Shown here: piece by piece, positions 1 through 5,671 of the stretch
How positions within the stretch are numbered: position 1 is the stretch's first letter
How the letters are laid out: each line of letters begins with the position of its first letter
NCBI GenBank assembly: GCA_018262455.1
Contig: JAGSPR010000420.1
Span: 1-5,672, forward strand
Source of the DNA: Deltaproteobacteria bacterium
Lineage (GTDB): Bacteria > Myxococcota > Polyangia > Haliangiales > Haliangiaceae
Reading direction: 5' to 3'
Length of the DNA: 5,672 bases
Translations under genes and position numbers: made by a program
Notes under the pieces: model-generated
Told to the model about the DNA's origin: nothing
The model's input: the letters and a program-made list of their open reading frames with translations, nothing else
The model's database searches: none

Positions 1-378
1 ATCGACGTCGCCGGGCCGGCGGTCGGGCTGGTGCTCGAGCTGTTCGGCGACTACGCGGCGAAGGGCCCGACCGACGACGAGGTCGACTTCGCGCGCAGCT
101 ACCTCGTTGGCTCGATGCCATTCCACATCGCGACCGCTCGCCAGCGCATGCAACTCGCCGTACGCGACGCGGTGTTCGATCTCCCTGCCGGCTTCACGGC
201 GCGGCTACCCGAGGCGCTCGGTGCCCTCGCCGCCTCCGATGTCCGGGCGGCGTGCGCGCGGTGCCTGCGTCCGGACTCGCTCGTCACCGTCGCCGTGACC
301 ACGGCCGACCAGGCGAAGGACGCGCTCGAGGCGTCGGGGGCCGGCACGCTCACGATCGTCGACCACGACGAGTACTGA
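1..378 (+). CDS. M16 (insulinase-like) family protein, C-terminal fragment
   Basis: This is the last 125 codons of a gene that begins left of the window; the frame is open from base 1 and ends at TGA 376-378. The fragment reads like the C-terminal end of an M16 peptidase domain. It has a helix leading to a GPTDDEVDFARSYLVGSMPF stretch (the family's 'G-x-T-x-x-E-hydrophobic-x-x-A-K/R-x-Y-L' pattern), then a helix ending in AVFDLPAGF. An ALAASDVRAACARCLRPDSL segment follows (the usual 'hydrophobic - T/S - x-D-V - ... - L - x-P-D' element), then a beta strand VTVAVTT. The zinc-binding HxxEH motif of M16 peptidases lies N-terminally and is not visible, so it is unknown whether the full protein is catalytic or one of the inactive M16 partners. 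The lipoprotein gene follows 35 bp downstream on the same strand and could share its transcript. Confidence 0.72.
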   Translation: MDVAGPAVGLVLELFGDYAAKGPTDDEVDFARSYLVGSMPFHIATARQRMQLAVRDAVFDLPAGFTARLPEALGALAASDVRAACARCLRPDSLVTVAVTTADQAKDALEASGAGTLTIVDHDEY

Positions 379-413: not shown

Positions 414-1826
414 ATGATGATCCGAACCGCATGGTGGGTGACCGCGTTGCTCTTCGCCTGCGCGAGCTGCGACAAGTCCAAGGTTTCAGCGGCTGGGACC
501 GCGGGCTCGTCGGAGGCGCCCACCGGAAGCGGCGCCGCGATCGCTGCGGCCGACCCATGGGCCGGCTCGGCCCCACCGGCCGATTCGTCGAAGTCCAAGC
601 TGGGTGAGAAGACCGGCGATGACCTGAGCAAGATCGATCCCTGGGGCAGCGGCAACACCGCCGCGCCCACGACCCTCGCCGCCAAGGTCGACGTCGCGTT
701 GATCGCCCAGCCGGTCGCCGACAAGGTGTCGCTCAAGAGCCTCACGGGCGCCTCCAGTGCCGGCTTCAAGGTGACGTACAACCCGTCGGCCAACGCGACG
801 CACGAGGAGTACCGCAAGCTGTTCGAACAGAATCACGTGTTCGAGGAGGTCGCGGAGGGGCTCAACCGGACCGTCCGGATCCCGATCTCGGTGGACATCA
901 ACACCGTCGACTGCAACACGATCAACGCGTTCTACGATCCGAGCAGCAAGCGGATCATCGTCTGCTACGAGCTGGTCTCGTACTTCCTCGGCGTGTTCAA
1001 GCCCACGGCAAAGAACGACACCGAGCTCGGCAACGCCGTGATCGGCGCGTTGATCTTCAGCTTCTTCCACGAGAGCGGACACGGCCTGATCGACATCCTC
1101 GACCTCGCCGCGGTCGGCCGCGAGGAAGACTCGGTGGATCAGCTCGCGACCCTGATCCTGATCGCCTCGGGTGACGAAGGCGTCTCGATGGCGCTGTCGG
1201 GCGCCTACTGGTTCCACCTTCAGTCCGAGGGTGGCCACAAGACACCGTTCTGGGACGAGCACGCCTTCGATGCCCAGCGCTTCTACAACATCCTGTGCCT
1301 CATCTACGGCTCCGATCCGAAGAAGTACGGCGAGTTCCTGACGTCCGGGAACCTGCCGCAGGACCGCGCCCAGCGCTGTCCCGGGGAGTACGCCAAGATC
1401 AAGCACGCCTGGGAGAAGCTGCTCGGTCCTCACCTCACGAATGGCGCGGCGCTCAACGTCGACTTCAAGCCGAGCGTCCCGGTTGCCGAGGCCCCGAAGT
1501 CCACCACCCAGGATCCGTGGGGTGGCTCGCCGACGCCCGTTGCGCCGACGCCCGAGCCCCCCGCCGAAGACGCGCCCCCGACGCACGCGATCACCTGCGA
1601 GGCCGTCGGCCAGAAGGCCGCCGAGCTGATCGGTGCGGAGGCCGAGCAACGCGCGAAGTCGATGTCCGAGGACGAGATCGCGGAGCTCAGAGCCAAGCTC
1701 GAGTCCGAGCTACCTGCCGCGATGGAGCAGATCCTCGCCGAGTGCGCCAAGGTTGACTGGTCGGATGCCTCGCGCAAGTGCGTGATCAACGCGCGCACGC
1801 TGGCGCAGGCGTCGAAGTGCAACTGA
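414..1826 (+). CDS. Putative lipoprotein metallopeptidase, DUF4344-like, with HESGH zinc motif
   Basis: This encodes 470 residues. ATG 414 was chosen over in-frame upstream codons from 252 because it begins a signal peptide: MMIR, then a hydrophobic stretch (residues 6-15), then cysteines at 16 and 19 preceded by LFA and CAS, a lipoprotein-like site. The ribosome binding site is weak. Residues 20-105 are a low-complexity linker with DPWA and DPWG motifs (47-50, 75-78). The core, about 115-342, matches what I know of DUF4344 putative metallopeptidases. It shows DCNTINAFYDP and IIVCYEL (Cys167, Cys184), then HESGH (219-223) as the HExxH zinc and catalytic site. GREEDSVDQ (235-243) follows, with acidic residues that could give the third zinc ligand, then FYNILCLIYG and LPQDRAQRCPGEY (Cys295, Cys322). 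A Pro-rich linker with a third DPWG (367-370) leads to a helical tail (391-470) with Cys395, 444, 456 and 469. The protein is likely anchored in an envelope membrane. Its substrate is unknown and activity is inferred only from the motif. Confidence 0.85.
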   Translation: MMIRTAWWVTALLFACASCDKSKVSAAGTAGSSEAPTGSGAAIAAADPWAGSAPPADSSKSKLGEKTGDDLSKIDPWGSGNTAAPTTLAAKVDVALIAQPVADKVSLKSLTGASSAGFKVTYNPSANATHEEYRKLFEQNHVFEEVAEGLNRTVRIPISVDINTVDCNTINAFYDPSSKRIIVCYELVSYFLGVFKPTAKNDTELGNAVIGALIFSFFHESGHGLIDILDLAAVGREEDSVDQLATLILIASGDEGVSMALSGAYWFHLQSEGGHKTPFWDEHAFDAQRFYNILCLIYGSDPKKYGEFLTSGNLPQDRAQRCPGEYAKIKHAWEKLLGPHLTNGAALNVDFKPSVPVAEAPKSTTQDPWGGSPTPVAPTPEPPAEDAPPTHAITCEAVGQKAAELIGAEAEQRAKSMSEDEIAELRAKLESELPAAMEQILAECAKVDWSDASRKCVINARTLAQASKCN

Positions 1827-1848: not shown

Positions 1849-3432
1849 CTACCAGATCACCTGCGCCTGAAGCTTGAACACGTCGCTGTCGGGCTCGGTC
1901 TCGAGCGGCACCTGGCCCGCGCGGAGATGGACCTTGTCGCCGTACGTGTAGTGCGAGTACATGAAGAACAGCTCGCCCCAGGTGTCGAGCGGGAACGTCA
2001 CGCGCGGCGAGACCACGCGGAAGCTGTTCTCGGAGTCGTAGAGGTCGAGGACGACGCGGTCGTAGCGCAACGAGACGGCGAGCTGCTTGAGGACCTTGTA
2101 CGACGGCTCGAGCCCCCACTTGAGGTAGAGCCGGCGGTCGCGATTGGCCAGCGGATCCATCTCGTCGACCTGTCTCGAGCGGACCCAGGTCGCCATGCCG
2201 AACGCGCGGACGCCGATCTTGTCGTTGACCTTCACCGGGACGTCAGTCGCGAGCGTGTACATCCGACCGGTGCCGTCCTCGCTCGCGTCGGTCCCGAGGA
2301 AGTTCTCGGTCAGGCCGCGACCACCGGTCGAGTGCATCACCTCGAGCGCCGGTGCGAGGTAGAGCACCTTCTTCATGTTGTAGAACGAGAACGCGAGGTA
2401 GGCGGTGCCGCGATCGCCGGGGAGCTTGTAACGCCCATCGAGCCCGGCGACCCACATCGTGCCGTCCTGGATCGGGCTGAGCTGACGTTGATCGCGCGTC
2501 CACGAGCGCAGGAGGTAGGCGCCAACCTCGACCCCGCGGACCGGATACGAGCCCGCGACGTGCGCGATCGGCGTCATCCCGAGGTTCTGCTGGAGCTCGG
2601 CCTGGTGGATGCCGATGCCCGCCTGGACCTTGCCATTGCCCGGGAGCTTGTACGCGACCTTGACGCCGCCCTGGTGGGTGCGACCGAACACGTAGGTGTC
2701 GTACGCCGGCAGGTAGCCGAAGCGATCCCAGAACACGCCGAGCTGTACCGAGAGGGGCTCGACATCGAGGAACTTCTCGGCGGTGACACTCGCCTGCGCG
2801 ATCCCGAGCTGGTTCTCGAGCCGCGCGCTCGCGTAGTCCGAGTACAGCGACGCGAAGATGCCAAACTCGGCCTTGTAGTTGCCGCGCCGGGCCGAGAAGA
2901 ACAGCTCGGACCAGTCGGGCTCGTAGAGCCGCGTGTAGGCGAAGCCGGACAGGAAGTAATCGTTGTCGACCAGGTACGGCTCGCGCTTGCCCTGCGCCGA
3001 CAGCGGCATCCGCGCGTAGCCGTGAAGCTCGAACCGCACGTCCTTGACGTTGATCCCTGCATCGGTCGCGCCCGGCTTGGCGACCGTCCCCACGGTGTCG
3101 GACGAGCTGATCGACTCGACCGCCGCAGTGGACTTGTTCGTCGAGGGAACGGCAGTGGCCGGTGGCTTGCCGGGCGCGACCGGGATCGCGTTGGCGACGA
3201 CCGGCTTGCCAGCGGGCTCCACCAGGGGCTTGGCCGCGTCGGCGTCGGAGTCGGCGTCGGCCGGGGCCGGGGCCCCTGCCCGCGCGACGCACTTCTGCTC
3301 GACCCAGGCGATGCACGGCGCCTCGGGATCGGCACCCGCGACGACCTTGGTTGGATGCTTCGGGTTGCCACCGGCGTGGGCGCCGACCGTCCACAACATG
3401 CTCGCGACGACCAGGCTCTTGCAGACCTTCAT
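1849..3432 (-). CDS. Outer-membrane beta-barrel (porin-like) protein, last gene of the sugar-transport operon
   Basis: This encodes 527 residues. The start at 3432 is favoured over an in-frame ATG at 3453 because GGAGGTGG lies just upstream and the protein then opens with a signal peptide, MKVCK plus a hydrophobic run ending AHA, with likely cleavage after residue 20. Residues 21-130 are a non-barrel extension. It holds a Cys40-Cys48 pair, an acidic DADSDADA patch and a long Ala/Pro/Lys/Ser/Thr linker. From FELHGYARMPL (134-144) to the end the sequence alternates polar and hydrophobic or aromatic residues in strand-sized blocks separated by turns such as KLPGNGK and KLPGDRG. It ends in QAQVIW, and a terminal aromatic residue is the usual outer-membrane barrel signature recognised by the BAM machinery. 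The FxLHGYxR opening recalls carbohydrate porins, but I do not recognise a named family. The start overlaps the stop of the permease-binding protein fusion by 4 bases (ATGA). A role in sugar entry across the outer membrane is inferred from this coupling. Confidence 0.83.
   Translation of the reverse strand: MKVCKSLVVASMLWTVGAHAGGNPKHPTKVVAGADPEAPCIAWVEQKCVARAGAPAPADADSDADAAKPLVEPAGKPVVANAIPVAPGKPPATAVPSTNKSTAAVESISSSDTVGTVAKPGATDAGINVKDVRFELHGYARMPLSAQGKREPYLVDNDYFLSGFAYTRLYEPDWSELFFSARRGNYKAEFGIFASLYSDYASARLENQLGIAQASVTAEKFLDVEPLSVQLGVFWDRFGYLPAYDTYVFGRTHQGGVKVAYKLPGNGKVQAGIGIHQAELQQNLGMTPIAHVAGSYPVRGVEVGAYLLRSWTRDQRQLSPIQDGTMWVAGLDGRYKLPGDRGTAYLAFSFYNMKKVLYLAPALEVMHSTGGRGLTENFLGTDASEDGTGRMYTLATDVPVKVNDKIGVRAFGMATWVRSRQVDEMDPLANRDRRLYLKWGLEPSYKVLKQLAVSLRYDRVVLDLYDSENSFRVVSPRVTFPLDTWGELFFMYSHYTYGDKVHLRAGQVPLETEPDSDVFKLQAQVIW
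3236..3259 (-). repeat. Four-copy hexamer repeat inside the barrel gene's linker
   Basis: Three copies of GCGTCG and one GAGTCG variant (plus-strand reading) lie head to tail. On the minus strand they encode the acidic DADSDADA stretch (about residues 59-66) in the extension before the barrel. The block is in frame, so copy-number change by slippage would lengthen or shorten the acidic patch by two residues per unit without a frameshift. Confidence 0.6.
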
Positions 3433-5630
3433 TTGCCACCTCCAAGCCTGCATGCAGGCAGCTCGCTTGCCGTGAGGAATCCGCTGTCGACCAGCAGCGA
3501 CTTGACGTTCTCGGTCGTGACCACGACGACGCGCACCGCGACGACCGGAACCTCTCCACCTCCGAGCGAGACCTTGCCGTCTGACTTCGGGAGCTGATGA
3601 TCGAGCACGGCCTTCGCGACGTCAGCCGCGGTCGTGGCGAGCGGCGCGATGTCCTTCAAGACCTCGATCGACTGCTTGCCCTGGCACACGAAGTTCACGT
3701 TCGCGGCGTCGGCGTCCGCGCCGGCGATGAACACGTGCTCGGCGCCGGCCGCGGTGACGGCCTGCACGGCCCCACGTGCCATGCCGGAGTTGTTCGCGAG
3801 GATCGCATCGAGCTTGCCGCCCGATCGCGTCAGCGCGTCCTCGACGGTGCGCAGCGCCTGCTCCGGGGACCACGAGCTGTGGTTCTGCTTCATCACGATC
3901 TCGATGTCTCCGCGCGCGATGTACGGCGCGAGCGTCTCCTCGTAGCCGCGCGTGATCTCCGTCGCGACCGAGTGACCGGACTGCCCCGAGAGCAGCACGT
4001 ACTTGCCCTTGCCGCCGGTCGCGGCGATCGCGGCCTCGGCCTGGAGGACGCCGACCTTGTAGCTGTCGTGCGAGACGTAGTAGTCGAGGTCCTTCGACAC
4101 GATCGCGCGGTCATAGGCGATGACCTTCGCGCCGCGCTCGTGCGCGAGCGTGACGTAGGCCGCGGCGGCCTTGCTGTCGGTCGGCTGGATCACGAGCACC
4201 TTGGCGCCGAGCGTGAGCGCATCCTCGACCTGCGCCATCTGCTTGGCGTTGTCGTTGTCGGCGGCGAACGTGACGGTCCGGAACCCGAGCTCCTTCGCGT
4301 GGGCCTCGAAGTACTTGAGGTCCTTCTGGTAGCGTTCCTCCTGCAGCGTCGAGAGCAGGAACGCGACCTCGGGTCGGTCCGCCTCCTTGGGAGCTGCCGC
4401 GAACGCGACCAGGCCGACCACGACGAGCGTGAATCCGGCGAGCAGGATGCCGAGCGTCCGGGTGCCGCGACCACTCTTGACGACCACGTCGATCAACACC
4501 GCGAGCAGCAGGATCATGCCGGTGAACATGAGCTGCCAGTTCGAGTCGATGCCGAGCAGGCTCATGCCGTTGGCGAGCGTCGCGAACACGAGCGTGCCGA
4601 GCACCGTTCCGACCACCGAGCCGCGACCGCCCGCGATCGACGTCCCGCCGATCACCACGGCCGTCACCGCATCGAGCTCGAGCATCGAACCCTGGTTACT
4701 GGCGGTGACGCCGTTGACGCGCGCCGCGGCGACAAGGCCTGCGAGGCCGGTCAGGACGCCCATGATCATGTAGACCGCGAGGGTGACGCGCTTGACCGAG
4801 ATCCCCGACAGCCGCGCGGCCTCTGGATTGCCGCCGATCGCGAACAGATGCCGGCCAAACCGCGTGCGTTTCGTGAGGAACACGCCACCCAGCGCGACGG
4901 CACCGGCCACGAGCACGGGCACCGGCACGCCGCGGTCGCCAAAGACCGCGAGCAACAGGCCCGCGAGCAAGATCTGTCCCGCCATGCGGATCGCGACCGC
5001 GGTGGTGGTGAGCGGCTCGAGCCCGAATGCGCTGCGCCGGCGCGCCTCGCGGAACACGAGAAACAGGCCGAGCGCGAGGATGCCCACGATGATCGCCCAC
5101 GTCGCTCCGACCGGCAGCGTGCCGTTGAGGAACGCGAAGTCGTCGTGCATCTGCAGGCCCGTCGCGTTGGAGGCGACGAGCGCCCCGCCGCGATACGCCT
5201 TGAACCCGGCGAGCGTGACGATGAAGGCCGGCACGCCAAGCCAGCCTGTCCAGTAGCCGTGCCACGCTCCGATCGCCGCGCCACACGCGAGCGCTGCGAG
5301 GATCGCCCACGGCGCCGACATCCCGAGCTTCACCTGGACCAGCGCGGCGACCACGCCGGTCAACGCGATGCCCGCACCGACGGACAGATCGATGCCGCGG
5401 ATCAGGATCACCATCGTCATCCCGACCGAGACGATCAACAGCACCGAGTACTGCGAGAGCAGCGTCGCGATGTTGCCGCGGGTCAGCACGAGGGAGCGGG
5501 TCGCTGGCAGCGCGGCGAGGAGCGCCCACATGACCACGAGCACGCCGGCCATCGCCCACGTGTTGAGCTCGATGCGGCGGCCTGCCCGCGCGCGCGCGCC
5601 ACCCGGATCTGCATTTCGTTCGAGCTTCAC
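3429..5630 (-). CDS. xylH-xylF: Sugar ABC transporter permease fused to periplasmic sugar-binding protein (XylH-XylF-like)
   Basis: This 733-residue protein starts at GTG with GAGGAG 7 bases upstream. Residues 1-387 resemble the D-xylose permease XylH (BPD_transp_2, CUT2 family): GIDLSVGAG (79-87), VPAFIVTLAG (133-142), DRGVPVPVLV (232-241), IGGNPEAARLSGI (265-277), VIGGTSIAGG (326-335) and ILLLAVLID (373-381), with about ten hydrophobic segments. Residues 388-413 add one more hydrophobic segment shaped like a signal peptide (RGTRT, hydrophobic core, AFAAAP). Residues 420-720 resemble XylF (Peripla_BP_4): EERYQKD (431-437), AYDRAI (505-510), SSWSPEQAL (585-593), LANNSG (611-616), GADAD (637-641), LKDI (658-661) and DSGFLTASEL (715-724). 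From recalled XylF sequence, candidate sugar contacts Arg433, Asp507/Arg508, Trp587, Asn614, Asp639 and Lys659 are kept. E. coli XylH and XylF are separate proteins of roughly 390 and 330 residues, so the length is a simple sum. It would sit in the inner membrane with the binding domain in the periplasm. Xylose is the best guess; another pentose or hexose is possible. Confidence 0.92.
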   Translation of the reverse strand: MKLERNADPGGARARAGRRIELNTWAMAGVLVVMWALLAALPATRSLVLTRGNIATLLSQYSVLLIVSVGMTMVILIRGIDLSVGAGIALTGVVAALVQVKLGMSAPWAILAALACGAAIGAWHGYWTGWLGVPAFIVTLAGFKAYRGGALVASNATGLQMHDDFAFLNGTLPVGATWAIIVGILALGLFLVFREARRRSAFGLEPLTTTAVAIRMAGQILLAGLLLAVFGDRGVPVPVLVAGAVALGGVFLTKRTRFGRHLFAIGGNPEAARLSGISVKRVTLAVYMIMGVLTGLAGLVAAARVNGVTASNQGSMLELDAVTAVVIGGTSIAGGRGSVVGTVLGTLVFATLANGMSLLGIDSNWQLMFTGMILLLAVLIDVVVKSGRGTRTLGILLAGFTLVVVGLVAFAAAPKEADRPEVAFLLSTLQEERYQKDLKYFEAHAKELGFRTVTFAADNDNAKQMAQVEDALTLGAKVLVIQPTDSKAAAAYVTLAHERGAKVIAYDRAIVSKDLDYYVSHDSYKVGVLQAEAAIAATGGKGKYVLLSGQSGHSVATEITRGYEETLAPYIARGDIEIVMKQNHSSWSPEQALRTVEDALTRSGGKLDAILANNSGMARGAVQAVTAAGAEHVFIAGADADAANVNFVCQGKQSIEVLKDIAPLATTAADVAKAVLDHQLPKSDGKVSLGGGEVPVVAVRVVVVTTENVKSLLVDSGFLTASELPACRLGGGK
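3436..3443 (-). promoter_or_regulatory. Shine-Dalgarno site for the barrel gene
   Basis: On the minus strand GGAGGTGG is followed by CAA and then ATG at 3432; the GGAGG core sits 6 bases from the start codon. The site lies wholly within the last codons of the upstream gene, where it encodes the Gly-Gly-Gly of its LGGGK tail. It settles the start choice for the barrel gene and supports coupled translation across the ATGA overlap at 3429-3432. Confidence 0.8.
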
Positions 5631-5671
5631 GACGCGACTCCTCGTTGATCCTGCTGAATGTGCGCCGCCGA
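5627..5671 (-). CDS. C-terminal end of an upstream operon gene, possibly the transporter ATPase
   Basis: One minus-strand frame entering from the right edge reads SAAHIQQDQRGVAS and stops at TGA 5629-5627. That stop overlaps the GTG start of the fusion gene in the arrangement GTGA, matching the ATGA junction at the other end of the fusion. The transporter needs a nucleotide-binding subunit (XylG-like) and none is encoded elsewhere in the window, so this position is a natural place for it. Fourteen residues are too few to recognise a family, and the identity rests on context alone. Other frames here are also open, so the coding call itself is tentative. Confidence 0.45.
   Translation of the reverse strand, partial: SAAHIQQDQRGVAS
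5638..5643 (-). promoter_or_regulatory. Shine-Dalgarno site for the permease-binding protein fusion
   Basis: GAGGAG on the minus strand precedes the GTG start at 5630 by 7 bases. The frame is open upstream of this GTG to the window edge, so the site is what decides the start, together with the GTGA overlap with the upstream gene's stop. It lies inside the upstream coding sequence, as does the site used by the next gene. Confidence 0.7.

What the first reader, a model, noticed from the sequence alone, without database searches (positions are those of the whole stretch)
3429..5630. Sugar ABC permease and its binding protein encoded as one polypeptide
Both halves are recognisable at full length: XylH-like motifs to about residue 387 and XylF-like motifs from about 420 to 724, with no stop or frame change between. 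In the CUT2 sugar family the binding protein is normally a free periplasmic protein. Permease-tethered binding domains are well known in amino-acid and osmolyte importers (GlnPQ-type, OpuA-type) but not, to my knowledge, as a standard arrangement for xylose/ribose-type systems. If the permease works as a dimer, each transporter would carry two permanently attached receptors, fixing the stoichiometry and possibly favouring scavenging at low sugar levels.
Basis: partly seen in the sequence, partly recalled or inferred. Interest (0 to 1): 0.75.

Follow-up and report, generated by a model that had tools for sequence, protein, structure and literature searches.

The report
Sugar importer with built-in sugar receptor
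A probable myxobacterium makes the membrane channel and the sugar-catching receptor of a sugar importer as one protein, while near relatives make them as two with the receptor apparently held by a fat anchor, and the family tree suggests that the joined form arose several separate times.

Summary
ORF 3429-5630(-) is one intact 733-aa frame: CUT2 permease, an 11th membrane helix, and a XylF-type binding domain. It is no assembly error: the 56 best database rows carry both domains, 52 of them at 700 aa or more.

Ten of 35 genomes of the nearest relatives' order, and eight more in the same class, encode the halves as two genes at the same locus. In all 18 the binding protein begins with a lipoprotein-like signal (judged by eye); in the ten, the genes overlap by 4 nt. 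The fused proteins lack that lipobox cysteine and keep a membrane helix instead.

A tree needs 5 switches between the states, and AU tests reject uniting the fused forms. So a lipid-anchored receptor probably became a helix-anchored one repeatedly.

In most relatives the operon also holds a GH15-like exported glycosidase, the ATPase and a maltoporin/ScrY-like barrel; the window shows the barrel.

The architecture itself is not new: Streptomyces and ChvE/GguB-type proteins have the same domain order, and a CUT1 MalE-MalF fusion is published. The sugar, the topology and the lack of cleavage are untested.

The parts
3429..5630 (-). fused gene: CUT2 permease, membrane helix, XylF-type binding domain, 733 aa; GTG start, TGA stop
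   Evidence: open frame; Pfam and NCBIfam; 52 full-length relatives
4467..5630 (-). permease half, residues 1-388, ten hydrophobic segments
   Evidence: BPD_transp_2 at 53-378; Kyte-Doolittle scan; tblastn limits
4392..4448 (-). 11th hydrophobic helix, residues 395-413, at the place of the lipoprotein signal peptide of split relatives
   Evidence: helix 390-410 in the model
3432..4373 (-). XylF-type sugar-binding domain, residues 420-733
   Evidence: Peripla_BP_4 at 422-678; model matches 4ywh and E. coli XylF 3ma0
5627..5671 (-). likely last codons and stop of the upstream ATPase gene (XylG-like), overlapping the fused gene's start by 4 nt
   Evidence: frame reading ...GVAS and stop, same last four residues as the XylG of fused relative L008; inferred, too short for a search
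1849..3432 (-). outer-membrane barrel, maltoporin/sucrose-porin-like in a low-confidence model; its ATG overlaps the fused gene's stop by 4 nt
   Evidence: overlap; present in 21 of 24 related loci, two of the three misses at contig ends; model mean pLDDT 60 and Foldseek

Best explanation
The gene encodes the membrane subunit of a CUT2-type monosaccharide importer whose binding protein is permanently tied to it by a transmembrane helix. Two copies would pair and work with one XylG-type double ATPase, so that two receptor domains serve one docking site. The fusion arose from an overlapping gene pair, permease plus lipoprotein-anchored receptor: the lipoprotein signal peptide became the 11th helix and its lipobox cysteine was lost. 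This happened several times in the class. Together with a GH15-like exported glycosidase and a maltoporin/ScrY-like barrel it would form a route that releases, admits and imports a monosaccharide, possibly glucose. Shown: the fusion, its conservation, the split lipoprotein-like relatives, the operon, the tree. Inferred: topology, lack of cleavage, direction of the change, stoichiometry, substrate.
For: Domains and intact frame. The helix between the halves: all 52 full-length fused rows have net positive charge before it and a 19-residue window of Kyte-Doolittle 1.88-2.89, then 10-32 residues (median 14) to the binding domain (the region before the helix was mis-parsed in one row, P0027). A cysteine lies in that region in 1 of 52 (P0012), inside the helix. 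In 18 of 18 split loci the binding protein has a lipobox-like end and cysteine before the same core; in 10 of 10 loci of the window's group it starts inside the permease stop with a 4-nt overlap, in the other group in only 2-3 of 8. In the window's group Lys stands at +2 in 9 of 10, Arg in the tenth, and Lys+2 goes with inner-membrane lipoproteins in Myxococcus xanthus, 8 of 12 (abstract and passages of PMC3222651). IQ-TREE: 5 changes, 5-5 in bootstraps, at least 3 forced by well-supported branches. AU: all fused as one clade p 3.7e-47, group A p 5.0e-4, group B p 1.7e-4, group A without P0015 p 3.2e-61. Permease and binding-domain trees apart also need 5 each (FastTree). Operon in 24 related loci: XylG in 20, GH15-like in 18, barrel in 21. 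XylG has two ABC stretches.
Against: P0015 as a separate origin is not supported (p 0.18). The AU groups were named after a first tree had been seen, and change counts cannot tell fusion from fission. AxA-like motifs stand near the helix end in 29 of 52 fused rows, the window's included, so cleavage by signal peptidase is not excluded. In M. xanthus a +2 Lys did not hold FibA in the inner membrane. Lipoboxes were judged by eye, not by a predictor. Both equivalog models fall below cut-off (GguB 266 of 450, xylF 224 of 390 bits), so the sugar is open. One locus, L071, lacks both GH15-like gene and barrel with ample flank.
Confidence: 0.78

Rival explanations
1. Polyprotein: the internal helix is a cleavable signal sequence; signal peptidase frees the binding domain, which acts as a free periplasmic protein made 1:1 with the permease.
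For: The window's helix ends in AAAP, and an AxA motif stands near the helix end in 29 of 52 fused rows.
Against: 23 of 52 fused rows have no AxA there; in Ala-rich helices the motif is expected by chance; the helix is 19 or more residues long with no polar c-region in the window. Split relatives keep a lipid anchor, so freeing the receptor would go against the pattern.
Confidence: 0.12
2. Fission: the fusion is old and the split, lipoprotein form derives from it several times.
For: Parsimony counts cannot tell gain from loss.
Against: Each fission would have to create a stop, an overlapping start and a lipobox at one place; both groups have the split form with lipobox, and the fused junctions differ in length and sequence between groups. 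The outgroup L068 is split but very distant.
Confidence: 0.08
3. The fused form is a sensor or a dead importer: a tethered receptor signals rather than feeds.
For: A relative of the binding protein occurs without its permease and ATPase in L006 and fused to the GH15-like enzyme in P0064.
Against: The fused permease half is conserved with third-position excess, and XylG stays next to it in the fused loci L065 and L067, and in part in L066 and L008.
Confidence: 0.05
4. Assembly or sequencing artefact that joins two genes.
For: Near relatives have two genes, 4 nt overlapping, so one indel could join them.
Against: The window's fused group holds 19 rows in the tree with support 100/100, from many contigs up to 2.7 Mb, and its linker is hydrophobic and in frame.
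Confidence: 0.01

Closest known systems
Streptomyces 'ABC transporter permease/substrate-binding protein' (RbsC-RbsB-like, about 650 aa)
   Same: BPD_transp_2 first, a hydrophobic segment, then Peripla_BP_4; one polypeptide
   Different: 30-34% identical to the window's protein; ribose-type halves; Gram-positive hosts. Whether split lipoprotein relatives lie behind it was not tested
ChvE/GguB-type fusions (about 790 aa; names seen: Solidesulfovibrio, Maridesulfovibrio, Thiorhodovibrio, Syntrophorhabdaceae)
   Same: same domain order with a hydrophobic segment between; both domains in the 70 best of 120 listed rows
   Different: about 30% identical to the window's protein; longer linkers in the rows examined
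Split XylH/XylF-like systems at the same locus in Polyangia relatives (L001-L005, L007, L069-L080 except L068 counted as outgroup)
   Same: same operon, 56-75% identical halves in the window's order
   Different: two genes; lipoprotein-like binding protein instead of an 11th helix
OpuA and GlnPQ (receptor domains joined to the membrane subunit)
   Same: works alike: a receptor covalently tied to the membrane subunit; two receptors per OpuA dimer (passages of PMC11065425)
   Different: other permease and receptor families: Pfam here gives BPD_transp_2 and Peripla_BP_4; no helix-for-lipid-anchor history known to me
MalE-MalF fusion (Licht et al. 2019)
   Same: a sugar importer with its receptor fused to a membrane subunit; title seen in the reference lists of PMC9045158 and PMC7756565, whose text calls MalE fused to MalF transport-competent
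   Different: CUT1, with two different membrane subunits; paper itself not held

Membership tests
CUT2 carbohydrate importers | permease of the BPD_transp_2 family | tested here: met
   135.1 bits against cut-off 26.8
CUT2 carbohydrate importers | binding protein of the Peripla_BP_4 type | tested here: met
   179.4 bits against 35.1; E. coli XylF fold at 36% identity
CUT2 carbohydrate importers | partner ATPase with two ABC domains in one chain | tested here: inconclusive
   adjacent XylG with two ABC stretches in relatives; the window holds only its likely last 14 codons
CUT2 carbohydrate importers | binding protein as a separate chain (usual arrangement, not a defining homology feature) | tested here: not met
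   one frame in the window
NCBIfam XylF (TIGR02634) and GguB (NF040906) equivalogs | score above the curated cut-off | tested here: not met
   224 of 389.55 and 266.1 of 450 bits; so no claim of xylose as substrate
OpuA/GlnPQ-type importers | receptor domain covalently tied to the membrane subunit | tested here: met
OpuA/GlnPQ-type importers | membership of their permease families (BPD_transp_1, name recalled) | tested here: not met
   the Pfam scan lists BPD_transp_2 and no other permease family
Lipoprotein binding proteins (split relatives) | lipobox with cysteine before the receptor core | tested here: not met
   no cysteine in the window's linker; met by eye in 18 of 18 split relatives

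The most novel reading that the evidence does not exclude
Within one class of bacteria, lipid-anchored sugar receptors have been turned into helix-anchored ones fused to their own permease at least four times independently, from the same overlapping gene pair, so that holding the receptor at the inner membrane beside its importer, rather than the fusion as such, is what selection keeps.
Probability: 0.55. Interest if true: 0.6.

Novelty: new variant of a known kind. Interest (0 to 1): 0.45.

Why it matters
Gram-negative binding proteins are usually thought of as free in the periplasm and in excess over the importer (passages of PMC9045158 and PMC8416018). Here one operon family offers fused and split forms of the same importer side by side, with several apparently independent switches. 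That is a natural experiment on what tethering a receptor does, and a clear case of a lipoprotein signal peptide becoming an internal membrane helix. The operon also suggests a complete route for sugar from a polymer-cutting enzyme through the outer membrane to the cytoplasm.

Tried and rejected
Artefact: rejected on the conserved relatives. Uniqueness of the architecture: rejected. Xylose as the sugar: left open, both equivalog models below cut-off. P0015 as a fifth origin: not supported (p 0.18). Fold matches of the permease half: the listed rows cover the binding domain only, so the permease fold was not tested. My first memory of the M. xanthus sorting rule was wrong and was replaced by what PMC3222651 says.

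Literature: ten searches. No listing or passage that I saw describes a CUT2 permease fused to its binding protein; I read passages or abstracts only, and most subscription papers are not held, so absence from print is not shown.

Dropped rows: four short fused rows left out of the 52; 17 near-copies and doubtful rows left out of the 84-row tree to give 67, then the long outgroup to give 66. Permease-only rows (nine, six) count as split because their frame ends after the permease; their binding-protein genes were not seen. L005, L012 and L080 are cut by contig ends. G023 and G006 were left unclassified as fused or split.

Full report

Is it real. Of the 120 listed hits, the 56 best carry both domains, 52 at 700 aa or more. 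The window's own fused group stands in the tree with 19 rows at support 100/100. A codon comparison with the fused L008 shows constraint on both halves and a loose linker. No whole genome is held for the window. Names of near rows (Kofleriaceae, Myxococcales, Deltaproteobacteria MAGs) place it among the Myxococcota by inference.

Relatives with two genes. The scan of genome contigs gave seven loci at 67-78% identity. In six of them the permease ends in its own stop and the binding protein follows in another frame; the seventh, L006, has a binding protein but no permease at this place. In the order of L002, 35 genomes are held: 5 fused (G010, G024, G027, G028, G029; G027 cut at a contig end), 10 split (G001-G005, G007, G009, G011, G030, G031), 2 with near but unclassified matches (G006, G023), 2 with distant matches (G008, G013), 16 without a match at 1e-30. 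In the class, searched with P0042, 33 of 317 genomes matched at 1e-50; eight outside that order carry the system and all eight are split. The fused members of that second group come only from the protein search.

The anchor. In all 18 split loci the binding protein has a short hydrophobic stretch ending in a lipobox-like motif with cysteine before the core (by eye). In the window's group the start lies 4 nt inside the permease stop in 10 of 10; in the second group in 2-3 of 8. Distance from cysteine to core is 9 residues in eight of the ten, and the window's helix ends about as far from its core. In 52 of 52 full-length fused proteins the helix is preceded by net positive charge, as expected if that side is cytoplasmic; 51 have no cysteine in the region and P0012 has one inside the helix. 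Lys stands at +2 in 9 of 10 split receptors of the window's group. In M. xanthus 8 of 12 inner-membrane lipoproteins have Lys there, though Lys+2 alone did not hold FibA back (PMC3222651, abstract and passages). In the second group +2 is variable (G, E, E, E, H, G, N, D), so the rule does not carry over to it. So in the window's group both forms are predicted to keep the receptor at the inner membrane.

How often. On permease plus binding core without the junction, FastTree on 84 rows and IQ-TREE on 67 rows each need 5 changes of state. Permease-only and binding-only FastTrees also need 5 each. AU tests reject all fused as one clade (p 3.7e-47) and group A as one (p 5.0e-4), group A without P0015 (p 3.2e-61) and group B (p 1.7e-4); uniting P0015 with the window's group is not rejected (p 0.18). 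The groups were chosen after seeing the first tree. I read this as at least four fusions: in both groups the split form carries the lipobox, and a fission would have to recreate stop, start and lipobox together. Direction is inferred, not shown. With a 4-nt overlap the genes lie in different frames, so joining needs a frameshift, not just loss of a stop.

The operon. In 24 related loci (25 searched, outgroup L068 left out) the order is GH15-like exported protein (18 of 24), XylG (20 of 24), permease, binding protein, barrel (21 of 24). Most misses lie at contig ends; L071 lacks both GH15-like gene and barrel in spite of ample flank, L006 lacks XylG and permease, and L070 has XylG about 6 kb away. 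The GH15 match is above cut-off but partial in three proteins tested (36.4, 24.4 and 26.3 bits against 22), and in P0064, where a MYXO-CTERM sorting domain also passes its cut-off; in the three others no such domain was listed. The barrel has no Pfam family. Its model is weak (mean pLDDT 60.2), with maltoporin and sucrose porin as best Foldseek matches (E 4.9e-9 and 1.4e-8, TM by target 0.54-0.57). In the window the barrel's start and the likely XylG end each overlap the fused gene by 4 nt; the GH15-like gene lies outside the window and is inferred from relatives.

What is known. The same order of domains stands in Streptomyces and Nocardiopsis proteins of about 650 aa, which databases already call permease/substrate-binding protein, and in ChvE/GguB-type proteins of about 790 aa. 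Order was checked by Pfam on four proteins of each. At about 30% identity to the window's protein they are probably separate fusions, but no tree tests that. In print I saw OpuA (PMC11065425 passages) and, by title and one passage, a MalE-MalF fusion. So the kind is known; the variant is the repeated exchange of a lipid anchor for a fused helix.

Noticed in passing
L006:3614-7080: XylG and permease are missing; the GH15-like gene runs straight into a lipoprotein-like binding protein whose start overlaps its stop. A receptor without its own importer.
   Followed up: partly
protein P0064 (unnamed contig): 1102-aa protein: GH15-like enzyme with a MYXO-CTERM sorting domain fused to the same binding domain.
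   Followed up: partly
window 414-1826 (+): Lipoprotein-like protein with DUF4344 (putative metallopeptidase), convergent to the operon; relatives lie near the operon in L006, L007, L065, L067 and L073.
   Followed up: partly
window 1-378 (+): C-terminal part of a protein without a Pfam match; relatives near the operon in L073 and L080. It reminded me of M16 peptidases; recalled, not tested.
   Followed up: no
L070:9710-15680: About 6 kb inserted between permease and XylG, with a frame that looks like a small transposase (likeness recalled, not tested).
   Followed up: no
protein P0012, helix between the domains: The one fused protein of 52 with a cysteine in the junction, inside the helix; possibly a remnant of the lipobox.
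   Followed up: no
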